Positions 1,997-29,547 of a stretch of 64,000 bases of DNA are shown piece by piece. A program made the position numbers and the translations under genes. Source of the stretch: Paraglaciecola marina (GTDB lineage Bacteria > Pseudomonadota > Gammaproteobacteria > Enterobacterales > Alteromonadaceae); NCBI RefSeq assembly GCF_004360155.1, contig NZ_SAIS01000007.1, positions 186,001-250,000 of the forward strand, read 5' to 3'. A model generated the notes under the pieces. The model saw only the letters and a program-made list of their open reading frames with translations, had not been told where the DNA came from and ran no database searches. Each line of letters starts with the position of its first letter. The first letter of the stretch is position 1.

Positions 1997-4344
1997 GGTA
2001 ACTTCTCCTGTTTACTCTGTTGTATAAATTCGTTGAAATACTGCACTGTAGAGTTGTTAAGCAAGTAGGTTTTTGAATGGGATACGGGTTCGGCAATCGG
2101 TGCTGGTATGGCTTGCCATAATTTAGCCCGTAAATTTGCAAGGCACTGATTGCAGTTTTTTATTGGTAATTGAGCAGCCAAACTGATTTTCTCTAAGGTG
2201 GCAATAAATACAATATCTTCAGGTGAATTAGCCAATTGCTCTGTGAAGTAGTTCTTAACTAGATTTAAATTATTTAGTTGCTGTTGAGTCAGCTGTGTCG
2301 TCTGCTTGGTTGTAGTATGGCTGAGTAAATTTAATAGTCCCTTAATGGCCTCTAAGTTTGGTTTGCTTAGCTTAATTTGTTCGTTACGTTCATAGCTAAG
2401 TATTTCTGATAAGTCTCCTTCGTATCTTCTTTTATCTGATACTGGCGGCGGCTCAAACCCGAGTCGTTTAACGTAAATACGCTCAGCTCTTTTGGCTCGG
2501 TTTAAATATTCAAGAGCTTGGTTTTCAAAGGGTAAAGCTTTTGCAGGCTCAGCTAATTGTAAGTGCAGTTCTGCTTGCCACATGTTGGCAATAGAACGTT
2601 TCATCAAGGTAATTGGACTAGGCACACCACGTTTTACAAAGTTGCCATCATCTGTGGCGCCATGTGCATGACCAAACTGCTCTATAGCTTGACTGAAACC
2701 AGATTTATCATTTGATGACTCATGTTCGCTGTGTTGGTGTTTTCGAGATTCAGCTTCCTCACGCAGTGCTTCTTCTTGTTCATCTTGTTGTTCATGGGCC
2801 TCGAGTAATGGATGTGGCAAAGCCTTACTCTTTTCATGCTCATCATGGTGATGGCTAGGCCCGGCTTCCATTGCGTGTAAGGTAGTAGCCTCAAACTCAT
2901 CCCCTAAAAATTGCCCATATTTCTGTTTAAGATCACTTTGCGCAGACCCTAACGCCCGAGAAGTATCAACAAAGCTTTTATTACTAATACTAACTTGGTT
3001 AGCAATTAACTCTTGGGTTTCAATAATGATTTGCCGCTGGCTTTTGAAATACTCAGGTACAAAATCAAGTAAAATACCTTCACTTTGTATGCCTTCTTGA
3101 TCTTCTTCTAGCCATCTTACGATTTTGTTGGCTGAGCGAGTCAGTTGCGGTGCAGGCTGATTGTTTTTCCAGGCGTTGTCGTATGCTCTGACACTAAAAT
3201 AAAGTTCATCTCCAGGTTGCATGCCTAAAGCAGATAAATCCCATTCCTTAAAAAACTCATTTTGGTCGTTCACGAGTTGTTGTGAGTCAAATACAAAGGC
3301 TTGATCCCTAAACTTTACCGACTCACCTGAACCACTGGCGATAGAGCCTAAAATCTCTACTTTACTCAGACCGAAGTCATCTTGAATTTGCACCCGTGTA
3401 ACAAAGTGAGGCTCTGCATTTTTGGGGATTTCAATTATGGTCTGGGTTGGTTCAATAAAGCGTATGTTTGGAGGTGTATCTGCTGTCACCTCCAAGGTGA
3501 AAATGTCTGAAATAGCGTTTTGTCTATGGGTAATAAAATAAATGCCAGTAGTACTTATTTCAGAACTGGCAGTATAGCTAGTATCACTATTTCTCGTAAA
3601 TTCGATTTGCTCTTGGCCTATTTTAAGGCCTAATTCAGAAGCTTGTATGTCTGATGATAATGTAAGCTGCCATGTCACATTAGAGCCAGTTACTAGTTGT
3701 AAATTAAAGTCTGTGGTTTCAACTTTTGGTAAACCAGTGTAAGTAGGTGGCTGAATTGAAATTACACTCGACTCAATCTTAATTGAAGCTGTTGACTCTA
3801 CCCCTTGGGGCAAAGCTATGACTTTTGATGGGGCGCTAAGGGAAGACTGGGTTCCTACAAATTTGATGGCAATAACGGCGAGTAATACAAAAACAGTTAT
3901 TGCAATGGCTATTGGCGCAGGGTAATGAGGCAGTTCAGTCGATAAATCTTTGGCGAGTAGCGCGGCAACTTTAGAGGTTATGCGAGCTTTTTGTAATCGT
4001 TGCAGTAAGTTCAAAGATTCATCTGGCACTACAATTAAATGTGCGCTTTCTTCACATTCAGGAAACTTTCTGTTTATGTGCTGTAAAACGGCTTTATCAG
4101 AAATCCTTTGGTATTTTGAGGTACGTGTTAGTTGCCAGCAAAATCCCAGTGGCATGCAGGCTAATATTACGTAAAGCCATATATTTAACCCAAGCGTTAA
4201 ATAAAACCCAGCCCAAACTACCACTACACACACCAAACTATATGCTAGTCGCTGCAGTAATGCTCGTCTGCGTATTATGGTAACTAGCGCTTTGAGCTGG
4301 CTTTGGATTAGGCTTAGGTCATAATTTGAAGATAAACTAGCCAT
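1993..4344 (-). CDS. DUF4175-type membrane protein with a histidine-rich insert (783 aa)
   Basis: The order next to MoxR, DUF58 and BatA-like genes, the length and the domain layout fit the DUF4175 family, whose function is unknown. Two hydrophobic segments lie near the N-terminus (about residues 32-75), followed by another around 145-165. Then come beta-rich regions with TADTPPNIRFIEP and a KVEILGS-type repeat, and a helical C-terminal half. Residues about 490-560 form a strongly polar stretch rich in His, Glu and Gln, including SHHHDEHEK and KHQHSEHE. It starts 1 bp after the BatA-like stop, with AAGGT as a ribosome binding site, and overlaps the next gene by 4 bp. Most of it is probably periplasmic. 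Confidence 0.75.
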   Translation of the reverse strand: MASLSSNYDLSLIQSQLKALVTIIRRRALLQRLAYSLVCVVVVWAGFYLTLGLNIWLYVILACMPLGFCWQLTRTSKYQRISDKAVLQHINRKFPECEESAHLIVVPDESLNLLQRLQKARITSKVAALLAKDLSTELPHYPAPIAIAITVFVLLAVIAIKFVGTQSSLSAPSKVIALPQGVESTASIKIESSVISIQPPTYTGLPKVETTDFNLQLVTGSNVTWQLTLSSDIQASELGLKIGQEQIEFTRNSDTSYTASSEISTTGIYFITHRQNAISDIFTLEVTADTPPNIRFIEPTQTIIEIPKNAEPHFVTRVQIQDDFGLSKVEILGSIASGSGESVKFRDQAFVFDSQQLVNDQNEFFKEWDLSALGMQPGDELYFSVRAYDNAWKNNQPAPQLTRSANKIVRWLEEDQEGIQSEGILLDFVPEYFKSQRQIIIETQELIANQVSISNKSFVDTSRALGSAQSDLKQKYGQFLGDEFEATTLHAMEAGPSHHHDEHEKSKALPHPLLEAHEQQDEQEEALREEAESRKHQHSEHESSNDKSGFSQAIEQFGHAHGATDDGNFVKRGVPSPITLMKRSIANMWQAELHLQLAEPAKALPFENQALEYLNRAKRAERIYVKRLGFEPPPVSDKRRYEGDLSEILSYERNEQIKLSKPNLEAIKGLLNLLSHTTTKQTTQLTQQQLNNLNLVKNYFTEQLANSPEDIVFIATLEKISLAAQLPIKNCNQCLANLRAKLWQAIPAPIAEPVSHSKTYLLNNSTVQYFNEFIQQSKQEKLP

Positions 4345-4345
4345 T

Positions 4346-5512
4346 CTAGTTACCTTCTACTTGTCTTGAGTGTTTATTAGGCCACTCACTCAATAAACGT
4401 TCGGTCATAAAAAGTATGACCAAAATTAATATTAACCATAGATGCAAAGACTGAGCATTGCCGGTATTAGTTTGTTGTTGATTAACTAAATCAAGATTCG
4501 GAAGTTCAGTTATTTGTTGATTCGAAAGCCTAGCGTTATCAGCAAACCATTGCTTAGTTTGCGCTGCAAATAGCTTGGTGGCTAAGGTGAGTGGGAAATC
4601 AGCTTGGGTGTAACCTTGTAGTTGTTCACTGCTTATTATGCTTGTTGCTGAATTAACTAACTCTGTTGGCAAAGGTGCATCTGCCAGATAAATAATATGG
4701 GATTGTTGTTGGCTTAAATCTAAATCTTCCTGTACCAAGCTAGAGTCTAAGTACTCAATGTTCAAATCTAGCGGCAGGGTAGTGGCCAAAGCATCTAATG
4801 CGCCGCGAACATAAAGTAATTGTTGCTGGTAGTTTGCGTCACTAACAATAGTTAATGAGGCTGTAAGCTTGGTTTCAGGTAAAGTGTTTGGTAAAGACTT
4901 TATGTGCCATTCAATTGGGTTAGTGATTGCGACTTTTTGCCCTGTAAATTGGTTTAGCCTGTTCGTGGTATAAAGCTGTATTTTCTGAGCTTTTGGCAAG
5001 GTTTTCGATATCTCTGCCAGATTCGCCCAGATATTTAGTGGTGGAGTGGTTGTTGAGCTAGTGTCCCCTTGAAACGCTAATAATGCCTTTGATTCAAGTT
5101 TTCGTTGCGATAAAGACTGGTTCAGCCCGTCGATTATAAACAAGCGAGAGTTCTGGCTAGAGTTTAGATCTTCGAATAATTGTTGTTTTTCAGCATCACT
5201 ACTTTGGGCTAACCAGTCATTACTAACTAGCACTAAGTTTGCACTTGTATCGGCATTTTTACTCCAAACCAGTTGTGCCAAAATGGCGCATGCGACTAGT
5301 AGCATCAGTAACCGTAATATCAATAATAACCACTGGGTCAACCGAGCTTGATTCAGCTGTGGCGAGTTTTTAACTTTGATTAAAGCAATATGTGCAAATG
5401 GGACTAGTTTGCCTCTATGTTTACTCAATAAATGGATGGCGATAGGAATTGTTAATGTTAATAACCCCCATAAATAATAGCTTAATTCAAAAGTAAGGGC
5501 TAACTTATCCAT
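4346..5512 (-). CDS. BatA-like N-terminal double-transmembrane protein (388 aa)
   Basis: The N-terminus matches the aerotolerance-regulator N-terminal domain seen in BatA/BatB proteins. A first membrane helix (about 10-30) is followed by the hallmark HLLSKHRGKLVPFAHIALIK, then a second helix (about 62-85). The middle is soluble and has no clear VWA MIDAS motif. A third membrane helix (about 357-375) lies near the C-terminus. It sits between DUF58 and DUF4175 genes, 30 bp after the former and 1 bp before the latter. In this family such proteins are thought to anchor or receive the MoxR-driven complex in the inner membrane. The exact role is not established. Confidence 0.75.
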   Translation of the reverse strand: MDKLALTFELSYYLWGLLTLTIPIAIHLLSKHRGKLVPFAHIALIKVKNSPQLNQARLTQWLLLILRLLMLLVACAILAQLVWSKNADTSANLVLVSNDWLAQSSDAEKQQLFEDLNSSQNSRLFIIDGLNQSLSQRKLESKALLAFQGDTSSTTTPPLNIWANLAEISKTLPKAQKIQLYTTNRLNQFTGQKVAITNPIEWHIKSLPNTLPETKLTASLTIVSDANYQQQLLYVRGALDALATTLPLDLNIEYLDSSLVQEDLDLSQQQSHIIYLADAPLPTELVNSATSIISSEQLQGYTQADFPLTLATKLFAAQTKQWFADNARLSNQQITELPNLDLVNQQQTNTGNAQSLHLWLILILVILFMTERLLSEWPNKHSRQVEGN

Positions 5513-5542
5513 TGGCTAGTCCAGAATGTAATAAGACTAGAT

Positions 5543-6439
5543 TCATAGCACTTTTTGCCTTGCCGATAAAAATTGGTGTAGGGTTTTATCCAAAGGTTCG
5601 TCAATATTTCCTTGAATATGTTGGATGTTATTCGCCGCAAGGCGCTCACTAATGCTTTGGTTCAATGCCAGTCTGTTTTCTAAATAATCTGCTTTTACAT
5701 CTTTCGCTGAAACTAAAACTTGTTGTTTGGTTTCTCTATCTTCAAAGCGAATATGGCCTTGGTAAGGGAATGTAATTTCATCATTACTTTCAAGTTGTAA
5801 TGCCACTACTTCGGTCTTGTGGCTTGATAAACTCCCCATGAAATCAAAAATTTCATTGTTGTGTTCATAAAAATCACTGACCACAAATATTACCGCGTTG
5901 TGGTGCATTTTAGCCAAATGGTTTTGGATGATAGCGCTATCTGGGAACACATCACCGGCCTGCACCTCACTTAATTGCAGTAAACATTTTTGCCATTGCT
6001 GTTTACCGGGTAAAGCCGGTAAAAAGTTTAGGTTTTGGCTAGATAAACCCAGTAAGCCTAAACCGTCGCCTTGCTGGTGGGCTATGTAAGCTATGGTGGC
6101 TAAGAGATGCCTAGCATAGTCAAACTTGTTCCACCCTTCCTTAGAATGAGAAGCTTGCTGTAACATGGATGCACTGGCGTCTAATACTAGCCAGATGTTG
6201 ATGTTACTTTCTCGTTCGGCTTCACGAACAAAATATCGGTCTGATCTCGCGAATAATTTCCAATCGATATTAGATAGGGCATCGCCAGGTTCGTAGGCTC
6301 GATACTGACTAAATTCAATACCTGTGCCTCGCTTTACACTGTTATGTAATCCATGGAGAAAGCCTTGGGCCACAGTCTTAGCGACTAAAGGCATATCTTT
6401 TACCCGTGCCAGTACCAAAGGGTCGAGAAACTGTTCCAT
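5543..6439 (-). CDS. DUF58 domain protein (MoxR partner, VWA-like)
   Basis: Residues 41-80 carry the classic DUF58 signature: IEFSQYRAYEPGDALSNIDW followed by KLFARSD and VREAERE. The strand after it ends in DASAS (87-91), which looks like the metal-ion-dependent adhesion site of von Willebrand A folds. At 298 aa it has the usual length for the short soluble form, with no membrane segment. It begins 3 bp after the MoxR gene. In known pairs the MoxR AAA+ ATPase acts as a chaperone on VWA/DUF58 partners, and that is the likely relation here. No client is known. Confidence 0.88.
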   Translation of the reverse strand: MEQFLDPLVLARVKDMPLVAKTVAQGFLHGLHNSVKRGTGIEFSQYRAYEPGDALSNIDWKLFARSDRYFVREAERESNINIWLVLDASASMLQQASHSKEGWNKFDYARHLLATIAYIAHQQGDGLGLLGLSSQNLNFLPALPGKQQWQKCLLQLSEVQAGDVFPDSAIIQNHLAKMHHNAVIFVVSDFYEHNNEIFDFMGSLSSHKTEVVALQLESNDEITFPYQGHIRFEDRETKQQVLVSAKDVKADYLENRLALNQSISERLAANNIQHIQGNIDEPLDKTLHQFLSARQKVL

Positions 6440-27836: not shown

Positions 27837-27845
27837 GTGGTATGT

Positions 27846-28655
27846 TTGGACTTACGTCAAAAAATTATCACTAGAAATAACATAAGCATACATGGTTCCG
27901 GTGAAACAACTTTGCTTTTAGCTCACGGATTTGGCTGTGATCAAAACATGTGGCGATTTATGCTTCCTGCATTAATACCTCACTACAAAGTCGTTCTTTT
28001 TGATTATGTAGGCTCAGGAAACTCACAGTTATCTTATTATAACCAAGAGCGTTACAGTTCACTGCAGGGGTATGCTCAAGACGTGCTTGAAATCTGTGAA
28101 GCCTTAAACTTAAGTGACGTGATTTTTGTAGGCCATTCTGTTAGCAGTATGATTGGGATAATAGCCTCAATTAAACAGCCTGCCTACTTTAAACGGCTAG
28201 TTATGGTTTGCCCATCCCCTTGTTTCCTAAATATTAAACCAGACTATTTTGGAGGTTTTGAAAAAGTAGATTTAGAAGAGTTACTAGGTTTGATGGATAA
28301 AAACTATATTGGTTGGGCGAATTATTTATCCCCTCTTGTTATGGGGGGGAGCCAGTCCGATGAGCTTATAGGAGAATTGTCTGGTAGTTTTTGTTCAACG
28401 GACCCGCTCATTGCAAAGTCATTTGCAGAAGCGACATTTTTTTCTGACTACCGTTATCTATTGAAAGACGCTAAGCACCCAGTCATCATTTTTCAAAGCG
28501 CTCGAGACGCCTTGGCCTCTGTAGATATAGGTAATTATATGCAGCAGCAGTTGCCTGAGGCCAAGCTATGTATCATTGATGCCGAAGGACATTGTTTACA
28601 TATGACCCAGCCTGAAATTGTTAATCAACATTTAAGAGAATACATTGGCGACTAA
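27846..28655 (+). CDS. RsbQ-like alpha/beta hydrolase
   Basis: This protein closely resembles Bacillus subtilis RsbQ, the hydrolase that activates the PAS-phosphatase RsbP under energy stress. It shares the AHGFGCDQNMWRFMLPALIP stretch, VVLFDYVGSGNS, the nucleophile elbow GHSVSSM, an acid in SARDA and a His in EGHCLHMTQPE. Counting from the TTG start, the triad is S98, D221 and H249. That is a constant two residues beyond RsbQ S96, D219 and H247, which supports this start. AGGTGG also sits about 6 bases before it; a GTG at 27837 is the alternative. It overlaps the downstream PAS-GGDEF gene by 11 bp, so the pair is surely co-expressed. It is cytoplasmic. The substrate or signal is unknown, as for RsbQ. 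Confidence 0.88.
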   Translation: MDLRQKIITRNNISIHGSGETTLLLAHGFGCDQNMWRFMLPALIPHYKVVLFDYVGSGNSQLSYYNQERYSSLQGYAQDVLEICEALNLSDVIFVGHSVSSMIGIIASIKQPAYFKRLVMVCPSPCFLNIKPDYFGGFEKVDLEELLGLMDKNYIGWANYLSPLVMGGSQSDELIGELSGSFCSTDPLIAKSFAEATFFSDYRYLLKDAKHPVIIFQSARDALASVDIGNYMQQQLPEAKLCIIDAEGHCLHMTQPEIVNQHLREYIGD

Positions 28656-29547
28656 GTATCAATTTGATTGTGTAGAAAATGTTACTCCTGATCTGTTTCA
28701 ATCTGGATTTTTAATTACGGATGAAAACCGTTGTATTATCTATGCGAATAGTTATTTTTCCGATGAGTTTAATTTGTTGACGGAAGAATTACTTGGGACA
28801 AGTTCTGATGGTTTGTTTACCCATTCATCTAGAATTTTTTGTGAAAGTTATTTAATGCCATTATTAGTTCATGAAGGAAATTGTGAAGAAATGCAATTAG
28901 CTCTAATAGACGGTGATGGTGACCGGGTCTCTATTATTGTTAGTGCCAGGATGGATAGGAAAAAACGAATTTATTGGAGCTTTTTTAACGCCAGCAAACG
29001 TGATCAACTCTATAATGAATTAATAGAAACTCGTAAAGAATTAGAAGCACAAACCAAAGTCCTGCAGTCTCTTTCATCAACAGATGAATTAACAGGCCTC
29101 ACGAATAGACGGGAATTTAACCTAAGAGCTCCGCAGCTTATCAAACAAGCTAAGCGATATGGTTACTCTTTTGCGCTGTTTATTATTGATATTGATCATT
29201 TTAAAAATATAAATGATACATTCGGACACTTGGAAGGAGACCGTGTGTTAAAAGAACTGGGTAGTCAGTTAAAGTCTTTTGGCCGAGAGACGGACCTAGT
29301 TGCACGTTTTGGAGGAGAAGAGTTTATTTTATTGCTTCCAAATATAAATATTGAAGATGCAAAATTTCAAGCTTTACGCCTACATAGCTTGATATCTAGA
29401 ATTCAAGTTAATCAGATTCCTGTTACTGTTAGTATTGGTGGCATGTTAAGTGATGGATCTCAAAACTTACGTGATACTACCAGTAAAGCGGACGATGCAT
29501 TGTATCGAGCAAAAAATTCTGGACGTAATAAAACTGTATTTTATTAA
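28645..29547 (+). CDS. PAS-GGDEF diguanylate cyclase, partner of the RsbQ-like hydrolase
   Basis: The protein makes cyclic di-GMP. An N-terminal PAS domain (about 15-117) contains LFTHSSRIFCESYLMPLL, a pattern I associate with the PAS domains of RsbP-type regulators. A short coiled linker (about 118-145) leads to a GGDEF domain with DELTGLTNRR, the metal-binding IDIDHFKNIND, and an active GGEEF loop (223-227). RETD (214-217), five residues before it, fits the RxxD product-inhibition site. There is no membrane segment, so it is cytoplasmic. The TTG start overlaps the hydrolase by 11 bp, with AAGAGA upstream. The hydrolase probably generates or modifies a ligand sensed by the PAS domain. Confidence 0.88.
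   Translation: MATKYQFDCVENVTPDLFQSGFLITDENRCIIYANSYFSDEFNLLTEELLGTSSDGLFTHSSRIFCESYLMPLLVHEGNCEEMQLALIDGDGDRVSIIVSARMDRKKRIYWSFFNASKRDQLYNELIETRKELEAQTKVLQSLSSTDELTGLTNRREFNLRAPQLIKQAKRYGYSFALFIIDIDHFKNINDTFGHLEGDRVLKELGSQLKSFGRETDLVARFGGEEFILLLPNINIEDAKFQALRLHSLISRIQVNQIPVTVSIGGMLSDGSQNLRDTTSKADDALYRAKNSGRNKTVFY

What the first reader, a model, noticed from the sequence alone, without database searches (positions are those of the whole stretch)
27846..29547. RsbQ-like hydrolase overlapping a PAS-GGDEF cyclase: a stress sensor rewired to c-di-GMP
The hydrolase keeps the RsbQ triad at positions shifted by exactly two residues. Its stop overlaps a cytoplasmic protein whose PAS domain looks like that of RsbP but whose output is an intact GGEEF domain with an RxxD inhibition site. 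In Bacillus, RsbQ activates the PAS-phosphatase RsbP by an unidentified ligand-linked mechanism. Here the same input pair would control cyclic-di-GMP. The hydrolase is also a relative of plant D14/KAI2 hormone receptors. The gene order and overlap are seen directly; the mechanism is inference.
Basis: partly seen in the sequence, partly recalled or inferred. Interest (0 to 1): 0.68.

Follow-up and report, generated by a model that had tools for sequence, protein, structure and literature searches.

The report
RsbQ hydrolase paired with c-di-GMP cyclase
Two overlapping bacterial genes encode a hormone-receptor-like hydrolase and the signalling enzyme it probably switches; this pairing was already described in 2011, so the find is one more member, although its wider family shows a strict spacing rule that hints at how the switch works.

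Summary
A 269-residue RsbQ-type hydrolase (27846-28655) overlaps by 11 bases a PAS-GGDEF protein (28645-29547). The Ser98-Asp221-His249 triad, GGEEF motif and RxxD site are present. The pairing is not new: Nadezhdin, Brody and Price (2011, PMC3183031) described RsbQ plus RsbP-type PAS as a module coupled to phosphatase, histidine kinase or diguanylate cyclase. This locus meets most of its defining features; two of nine class residues differ. 'A stress sensor rewired' is not supported: the cyclase form is a common branch of its own, and I found no stress link outside Bacillus.

Added here: (1) An RsbP-type PAS is paired with the hydrolase in 126 of 132 loci, and in 29 of 36 held-out loci (1 of these weak and distant), over about ten phyla. 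(2) One genome encodes hydrolase, PAS and GGDEF as a single 582-residue protein. (3) A cyanobacterial copy has a class III nucleotide cyclase as output, not listed in 2011. (4) PAS-to-GGDEF spacing is a multiple of seven in 73 of 73 anchored proteins; 32 of 54 anchored kinases sit at 7n+2, including all 29 simply linked HisKA ones. This fits signal transfer through a phase-locked coiled coil. The ligand remains unknown.

The parts
27846..28655 (+). RsbQ-type alpha/beta hydrolase, 269 aa, TTG start (alternative GTG at 27837); triad S98, D221, H249
28645..29547 (+). PAS-coiled coil-GGDEF diguanylate cyclase, 300 aa, TTG start, overlaps the hydrolase gene by 11 bases
28699..28989 (+). RsbP-type PAS domain (protein residues 19-115), with F-alpha signature R63 F65 Y69 P72 and E82; no DIT motif
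   Evidence: class residues from PMC3183031
28993..29079 (+). Helical linker, residues 117-145; R119 to D147 is 28 residues (4 heptads), R-x-x-L-Y-x-E-L motif at its start
29080..29544 (+). GGDEF domain (residues 146-300) with RETD inhibitory site (214-217) and GGEEF (223-227)

Best explanation
This is a member of the known RsbQ-PAS sensing module with a diguanylate-cyclase output. Most likely the hydrolase binds a still unknown small molecule in its Ser-His-Asp pocket. It then contacts the F-alpha face of the PAS dimer and the first turns of the helix that follows. This changes the register or rigidity of a parallel coiled coil that joins the two GGDEF domains, which alters c-di-GMP synthesis. 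The shown steps are gene pairing, intact catalytic residues, a conserved candidate contact face, and a linker kept in exact heptad phase. The inferred steps are physical contact here, the direction of the effect (activation, by analogy with RsbQ and RsbP), ligand-driven switching, and cyclase activity.
For: Pairing: 126 of 132 loci and 29 of 36 held-out loci, the latter including one weak, distant pair. A natural one-chain fusion of hydrolase, PAS and GGDEF sits in a single-contig genome (L035). F-alpha residues equivalent to RsbP F55 and Y59, which RsbQ binding needs in B. subtilis (PMC3183031), are present as F65 and Y69. P72 and E82 are near-invariant (124 and 123 of 126). The linker start is conserved across GGDEF and other outputs: R119 in 143 of 150, E125 in 119 of 150. 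This fits a published AlphaFold2 model that puts RsbQ between PAS domains and linkers of RsbP (PMC12143880, passages). Linker length from R119 to GGDEF D147 is a multiple of 7 in 73 of 73 anchored proteins. Of 54 anchored kinases 32 sit at 7n+2, among them all 29 HisKA kinases with simple linkers of 30 to 65 residues outside the separate 61-residue class. At least 5 (GGDEF) and 9 (kinase) length changes on the hydrolase tree kept that phase.
Against: No complex was modelled or measured. Residue co-variation between the two proteins gave no clear contacts: mean mutual information exceeded within-cluster shuffles (0.2480 against 0.2351, sd 0.0010), but the top corrected score (0.443) lay within the range of shuffle maxima (mean 0.415, highest 0.477). 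Two class residues differ here: C10 is Ser20 and P86 is Ser96. Heptad spacing is a known trait of coiled-coil-linked cyclases, so it supports the linker mechanism, not RsbQ's part in it; 22 of 54 anchored kinases are outside the 7n+2 phase. Five hydrolases with enough flank in the first set and four in the held-out set have no PAS partner, so RsbQ-type proteins can exist without one.
Confidence: 0.75

Rival explanations
1. Product delivery (Model 1 of the 2011 paper): the hydrolase cleaves a precursor and hands the product, or a cofactor, into the PAS cavity; PAS is the true sensor.
For: Catalytic triad conserved: fractions 1.00, 1.00 and 0.99 in 116 PAS-paired sequences; triad mutants are null in B. 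subtilis (stated in PMC3183031); PAS domains commonly bind ligands (general knowledge).
Against: Five hydrolases without a PAS partner and the plant receptor chains keep the same triad, so its conservation does not single out delivery. No ligand or cofactor had been found on RsbP-PAS (PMC3183031).
Confidence: 0.35
2. The two genes are only co-transcribed: the hydrolase is an ordinary esterase and the PAS-GGDEF protein senses on its own.
For: Gene overlap by itself shows no more than likely co-expression; lone hydrolases exist; I saw no direct interaction data for a GGDEF-coupled pair in the papers read.
Against: The same PAS subtype accompanies the hydrolase in about ten phyla with unrelated outputs; one fused protein; published binding in B. 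subtilis.
Confidence: 0.07
3. The PAS-GGDEF protein is a c-di-GMP-binding or otherwise inactive output, so the module does not make c-di-GMP.
For: Activity not tested; the genome has 52 other GGDEF matches besides one broken gene, so redundancy is likely.
Against: The residues usual in an active cyclase (roles recalled) are present: GGEEF, D182, F186, N190, D191 and an RxxD site. In 25 aligned rows D182, F186, N190, D191, G223, G224, E226 and F227 are invariant and E225 and R214 nearly so.
Confidence: 0.05

Closest known systems
RsbQ-PAS bipartite sensing module with diguanylate cyclase output (Nadezhdin et al. 2011, PMC3183031; e.g. Psychromonas ingrahamii A1SVT3)
   Same: Upstream RsbQ homologue, N-terminal RsbP-type PAS, coiled coil, GGDEF; no DIT motif; F-alpha signature
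   Different: Two of nine class residues replaced by Ser (C10, P86 equivalents); otherwise no difference found
B. subtilis RsbQ-RsbP
   Same: Hydrolase aligned over nearly its whole length (1WOM, E 4e-85); PAS of the same class by the published residues; helical linker
   Different: Output is GGDEF instead of PPM phosphatase; no sigma-B pathway implied. The B. subtilis RsbP sequence itself was not aligned
Olei00960 (PDB 3QVM; Oleispira antarctica, recalled)
   Same: Closest solved hydrolase, E 1e-109, same lid and triad in the alignment
   Different: Its gene neighbourhood was not looked at; no paper naming it in the library
Plant KAI2 / D14 receptors
   Same: Hydrolase family, triad, receptor-like hydrolase idea
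   Different: 19 of 77 columns conserved in paired RsbQs differ in all three plant chains compared, many of them in the lid; plant partners MAX2 and SMXL (recalled) were not searched for here
Phytochrome-linked diguanylate cyclases, PadC (PMC9587094)
   Same: Sensor to GGDEF through a length-constrained coiled coil
   Different: There 54% of linkers differ by multiples of seven and 38% by -4 (passages); here 73 of 73 are multiples of seven

Membership tests
RsbQ-PAS module (Nadezhdin 2011) | RsbQ homologue encoded directly upstream of the PAS protein | tested here: met
[quoted passage not shown]
   PAS at about residues 19-115 of 300
RsbQ-PAS module (Nadezhdin 2011) | Output is PPM phosphatase, histidine kinase or diguanylate cyclase | tested here: met
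   GGDEF 4.7e-44
RsbQ-PAS module (Nadezhdin 2011) | Potential coiled coil of at least 21 residues between PAS and output (36 of 45 in the paper) | tested here: met
   Helix 117-145 in the model, Leu at 126, 133, 140; the PCOIL program was not run
RsbQ-PAS module (Nadezhdin 2011) | Nine class residues (RsbP C10 L13 L48 Q53 F55 C56 Y59 E72 P86) | tested here: inconclusive
   F55, C56, Y59, E72 and L13 equivalents identical; Q53 position Arg (65 of 126 in the class); L48 position Phe (39 of 126); C10 is Ser20 and P86 is Ser96, not met. Mapping is by the motif text and an alignment of relatives, not by the B. subtilis sequence itself
RsbQ-PAS module (Nadezhdin 2011) | No DIT motif at the PAS end | tested here: met
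   N-A-S at 115-117
RsbQ-PAS module (Nadezhdin 2011) | Hydrolase binds PAS; catalytic triad needed for signalling | not testable with these tools
   Triad present; binding needs an experiment or a complex model
RsbQ family | Full-length match, Ser-Asp-His triad, RsbQ-type lid (S-F-C-S-T-D-P ... F-A) | tested here: met
KAI2/D14 receptors | Plant-type residues at lid and core columns | tested here: not met
   At 19 of 77 columns all three plant chains differ from the RsbQ consensus; the window keeps the RsbQ residue at 18 of 19
Active diguanylate cyclase | GG[DE]EF, substrate-site residues, RxxD I site five residues before | tested here: met
   RETD-LVARF-GGEEF; invariant columns; enzymatic activity not tested

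The most novel reading that the evidence does not exclude
The RsbQ hydrolase is a bacterial counterpart of the plant KAI2 receptor: one widely shared small molecule, still unknown, is read by the hydrolase in about ten phyla. Its occupancy turns a phase-locked coiled coil, so any dimeric output with the right heptad phase can be plugged in: diguanylate cyclase, kinase, phosphatase, class III cyclase, or everything fused in one chain.
Probability: 0.25. Interest if true: 0.65.

Novelty: new member of a known kind. Interest (0 to 1): 0.33.

Why it matters
Taken alone the locus is ordinary within a known family. The family matters because I found no report of its ligand in any organism (the 2011 paper states none was known, in B. 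subtilis included), and because the hydrolases are close bacterial relatives of plant hormone receptors. A cyclase output gives a simple reporter (c-di-GMP) with which to hunt that ligand. The fused protein makes the hydrolase-PAS contact directly accessible to structure work. The heptad rule gives a sharp, cheap test of how the signal travels.

Tried and rejected
Rejected: 'shift by two residues' as evidence (numbering only). 'Rewired from stress' (no support). A hydrolase fusion suggested by L091 (a 1597-residue open frame): the hydrolase seems to begin at its own Met and the rest reads as an out-of-frame shadow (by eye).

Led nowhere or inconclusive: residue co-variation between hydrolase and PAS over 121 pairs and 60 shuffles. 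Promoter and terminator scan: 6 promoter-like sites against 7.5 expected, no terminator against 1.7 expected. Papers on Olei00960: none in the library. Synteny: in 19 of 20 genus-mates for which a locus was given, no hydrolase, PAS-GGDEF or mutS match lay in the roughly 1.5 kb upstream of the aspartokinase gene, so the module sits at a variable site; the mutS side was not examined. The careful tree search did not finish; the quick tree was used. A control for the heptad rule from classic DIT-PAS-GGDEF proteins of this genome found only 5 cases with another anchor and cannot be compared. No tRNA in the window.

Dropped before counts: duplicates L041, L045, L058, L075 (taken as the same contigs as L011, L015, L025, L023) from the Pfam, tree and linker counts, though they are inside 126 of 132 and the 126-row residue counts; L115 (PAS split by a frame break) from the pair alignments; L189 has GGDEF but lacks the anchor motif and is outside the 73; L171, whose PAS is upstream and weaker, is inside the 73. 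Of 54 anchored kinases, 22 are off 7n+2: fifteen Bacteroidota kinases all at 61, one at 67, and six with long spacing (167, 179, 301); three with long spacing (170, 247) are on it. The class of 29 simple linkers was set apart after seeing the numbers. One search counted kinase changes on 22 rows only (spacing up to 65, without the 61 class, first locus set only). In the orphan comparison six divergent sequences and the contig-end locus L071 were left out. Output labels in the tree come from short motifs, so single rows may be mislabelled.

Full report
What is there. Window 27846-28655 (+) encodes a 269-residue alpha/beta hydrolase starting at TTG. Window 28645-29547 (+) encodes a 300-residue PAS-GGDEF protein, also starting at TTG, with an 11-base overlap. 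The hydrolase matches PDB 3QVM (Olei00960, E 1e-109), RsbQ of B. subtilis (1WOM, 4e-85) and then plant KAI2/HTL/D14 chains. Triad residues are S98, D221 and H249. The partner has Pfam GGDEF at 4.7e-44 and PAS at 1e-4, and RETD-LVARF-GGEEF, read directly. Its AlphaFold2 model (pLDDT 93.7, 25-row alignment) shows PAS-like strands and helices, one helix at 117-145 and a GGDEF fold. The top Foldseek hits are a LOV-activated cyclase (8C05) and the PAS-GGDEF-EAL protein PA0861.

It is already known in kind. Nadezhdin, Brody and Price 2011 (PMC3183031; I saw the abstract, two Results subsections, the first part of the Discussion and searched passages) found 45 adjacent RsbQ and RsbP-PAS pairs with three outputs: PPM phosphatase, histidine kinase and diguanylate cyclase. 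[quoted passage not shown] They offered two models: product delivery, or the hydrolase as receptor. A 2025 eLife paper (PMC12143880; [quoted passage not shown] The finding is therefore a new member of this kind.

Membership. The window pair meets the gene order, PAS position, output, linker and no-DIT criteria. Of the nine class residues, the F55, C56, Y59, E72 and L13 equivalents are identical (F65, C66, Y69, E82, L23). Q53 is Arg, the commonest residue there in the class, and L48 is Phe. C10 and P86 are Ser20 and Ser96. In the wider set Ser at the C10 position occurs in 15 of 126, and P86 is kept in 109 of 126. P72 (RsbP P62) is present in 124 of 126. The residue at position 69 is Tyr in 54 of 74 GGDEF partners and His in 64 of 76 others.

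Adjacency. A profile of the PAS domain, built from these loci, found a same-strand partner in 126 of 132: 121 downstream, 4 upstream (L043, L044, L053, L085) and 1 fused (L035). The 6 without were L037, L066, L071 (contig ends there), L113, L121 and L137. In 36 loci collected later and not used to build the profile, 29 had one: 28 at 13-62 bases downstream, and L171 upstream and weak. Seven had none, of which L190, L191 and L194 end within 168 bases; L192 and L193 are the weakest hydrolase matches. Controls: 0 of 6 loci of other alpha/beta hydrolases of this genome, and among 30 of its 55 GGDEF matches only the window's own protein scored strongly (6e-41, next 2e-4). Record titles and the tree listing show about ten phyla, several of them from metagenome-assembled genomes.

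Distribution is patchy: 12 of 22 genomes of the genus, 28 of 147 of the family, 3 of 369 of the class including the own genome, 20 of 398 of the phylum including the own genome, 17 of 293 and 21 of 347 in two other orders. Only the best few candidates per genome were scored in the large runs, so these are lower bounds. The genome has one RsbQ (the next match is 6e-12) and 55 GGDEF matches, two of them pieces of one broken gene.

Outputs. Pfam on 122 partners: GGDEF 57, HATPase_c 53, HisKA 43, EAL 5, SpoIIE 2, adenylate/guanylate cyclase catalytic domain 1 (kinases in loci with short flanks are cut off, so some domains are missed). The last is Planktothrix paucivesiculata L085: PAS followed by Guanylate_cyc at 3.2e-20, with the hydrolase downstream. 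This output is not among the three of the 2011 paper. Two Paenibacillus loci (L067, L074) encode only the PAS and a short tail. L035 is an in-frame fusion of hydrolase, PAS and GGDEF, 582 residues without a stop (its PAS matches the RsbP-type profile at 2e-30, but no Pfam PAS model at 1e-3), in a genome that also has an unfused pair, L022. On a quick tree of 128 hydrolases the output label needs 16 changes, against 52.6 for shuffles, so outputs are inherited for long periods and swapped repeatedly. Five of the six hydrolases without a PAS fall in one small, weakly supported region of the tree.

Linker phase. From the conserved Arg at the PAS end (R119) to the conserved Asp of the GGDEF domain (D147) the window has 28 residues. 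Over 73 anchored partners the lengths are 21 (1), 28 (54), 49 (1), 56 (13), 147 (3) and 287 (1): all multiples of seven. The 147 and 287 cases carry long inserts. HisKA kinases with simple linkers have 30 (9), 37 (2), 44 (4), 51 (5), 58 (7) and 65 (2), all 7n+2. With three longer ones (170, 170, 247) that makes 32 of 54 anchored kinases; the other 22 do not share this phase: 15 Bacteroidota kinases all at 61, one at 67, and 167 (2), 179 (3), 301 (1). On the hydrolase tree at least 5 changes of length (57 GGDEF rows) and 9 (22 kinase rows) are needed. If phase were free, the chance that all 14 keep it is about (1/7)^14, an estimate of mine that ignores the after-the-fact choice of kinase class. 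In the 28-residue class, positions 122, 126, 133 and 140 are hydrophobic in 54 of 54. The word heptad does not occur in the main text of the 2011 or the 2025 paper. For phytochrome-linked cyclases 54% of linkers differ by multiples of seven and 38% by -4 (PMC9587094, passages). So the rule is a known principle, kept here unusually strictly; the listings of paper searches showed no report of it for this module.

Hydrolase surface. Of 77 columns conserved in at least 88% of 116 PAS-paired hydrolases, 19 differ in all three plant chains compared, nine of them in the lid stretch 178-197, and 6 are lost in at least 3 of the 5 hydrolases without PAS (positions 107, 153, 185, 187, 224, 239). The lid stretch S-F-C-S-T-D-P is thus a candidate contact or pocket determinant; this is inference.

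How it works. I favour direct contact of the hydrolase with PAS F-alpha and the linker start, changing the register of a dimeric coiled coil and thereby cyclase activity. Whether the hydrolase is receptor or enzyme is open; I lean to receptor by analogy with KAI2/D14, weakly. 'Stress' is not supported by anything found here.

Verdict. Observation confirmed, interpretation partly supported, new member of a known kind, interest 0.33; the heptad rule, the fused protein and the class III cyclase output are the additions.

Noticed in passing
L035 (G002:C1:3922613-3926380), 565-2313 -: Natural single-chain fusion of RsbQ-type hydrolase, PAS and GGDEF, 582 residues, in a genome that also has an unfused pair (L022).
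   Followed up: partly
L085 (Planktothrix paucivesiculata, NZ_LR735002.1), 2886-3947 and 4001-4825 +: RsbP-type PAS followed by a class III nucleotide cyclase domain (Pfam Guanylate_cyc 3.2e-20) with the RsbQ-type hydrolase downstream: an output not listed in the 2011 paper.
   Followed up: partly
L067 and L074 (Paenibacillus), about 4836-5303 +: RsbQ-type hydrolase followed by a bare PAS plus short tail without any output domain.
   Followed up: partly
L043, L044, L053 (Vreelandella, Marinobacter): Gene order reversed: a PAS-GGDEF protein of about 580 residues (EAL confirmed by Pfam for L044) lies upstream, the hydrolase downstream.
   Followed up: partly
L037, L066, L113, L121, L137 (and held-out L172, L173): RsbQ-type hydrolases with no PAS partner nearby; the first five group in one part of the tree, and 4, 4 and 3 of 5 have changed N153, P187 and T185.
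   Followed up: partly
L115 (uncultured Olleya), 4830-6011 +: PAS and kinase parts lie in different frames, while the close relative L103 has one frame: a broken gene or a sequencing error.
   Followed up: no
G000:C8:161626-162094 - (own genome, outside the window): A GGDEF gene broken by stops among 53 other GGDEF matches.
   Followed up: no
window 27846 and 28645: Both genes appear to start with TTG, and TTG is the leftmost start of the cyclase frame in 7 of 9 genus-mates examined.
   Followed up: partly
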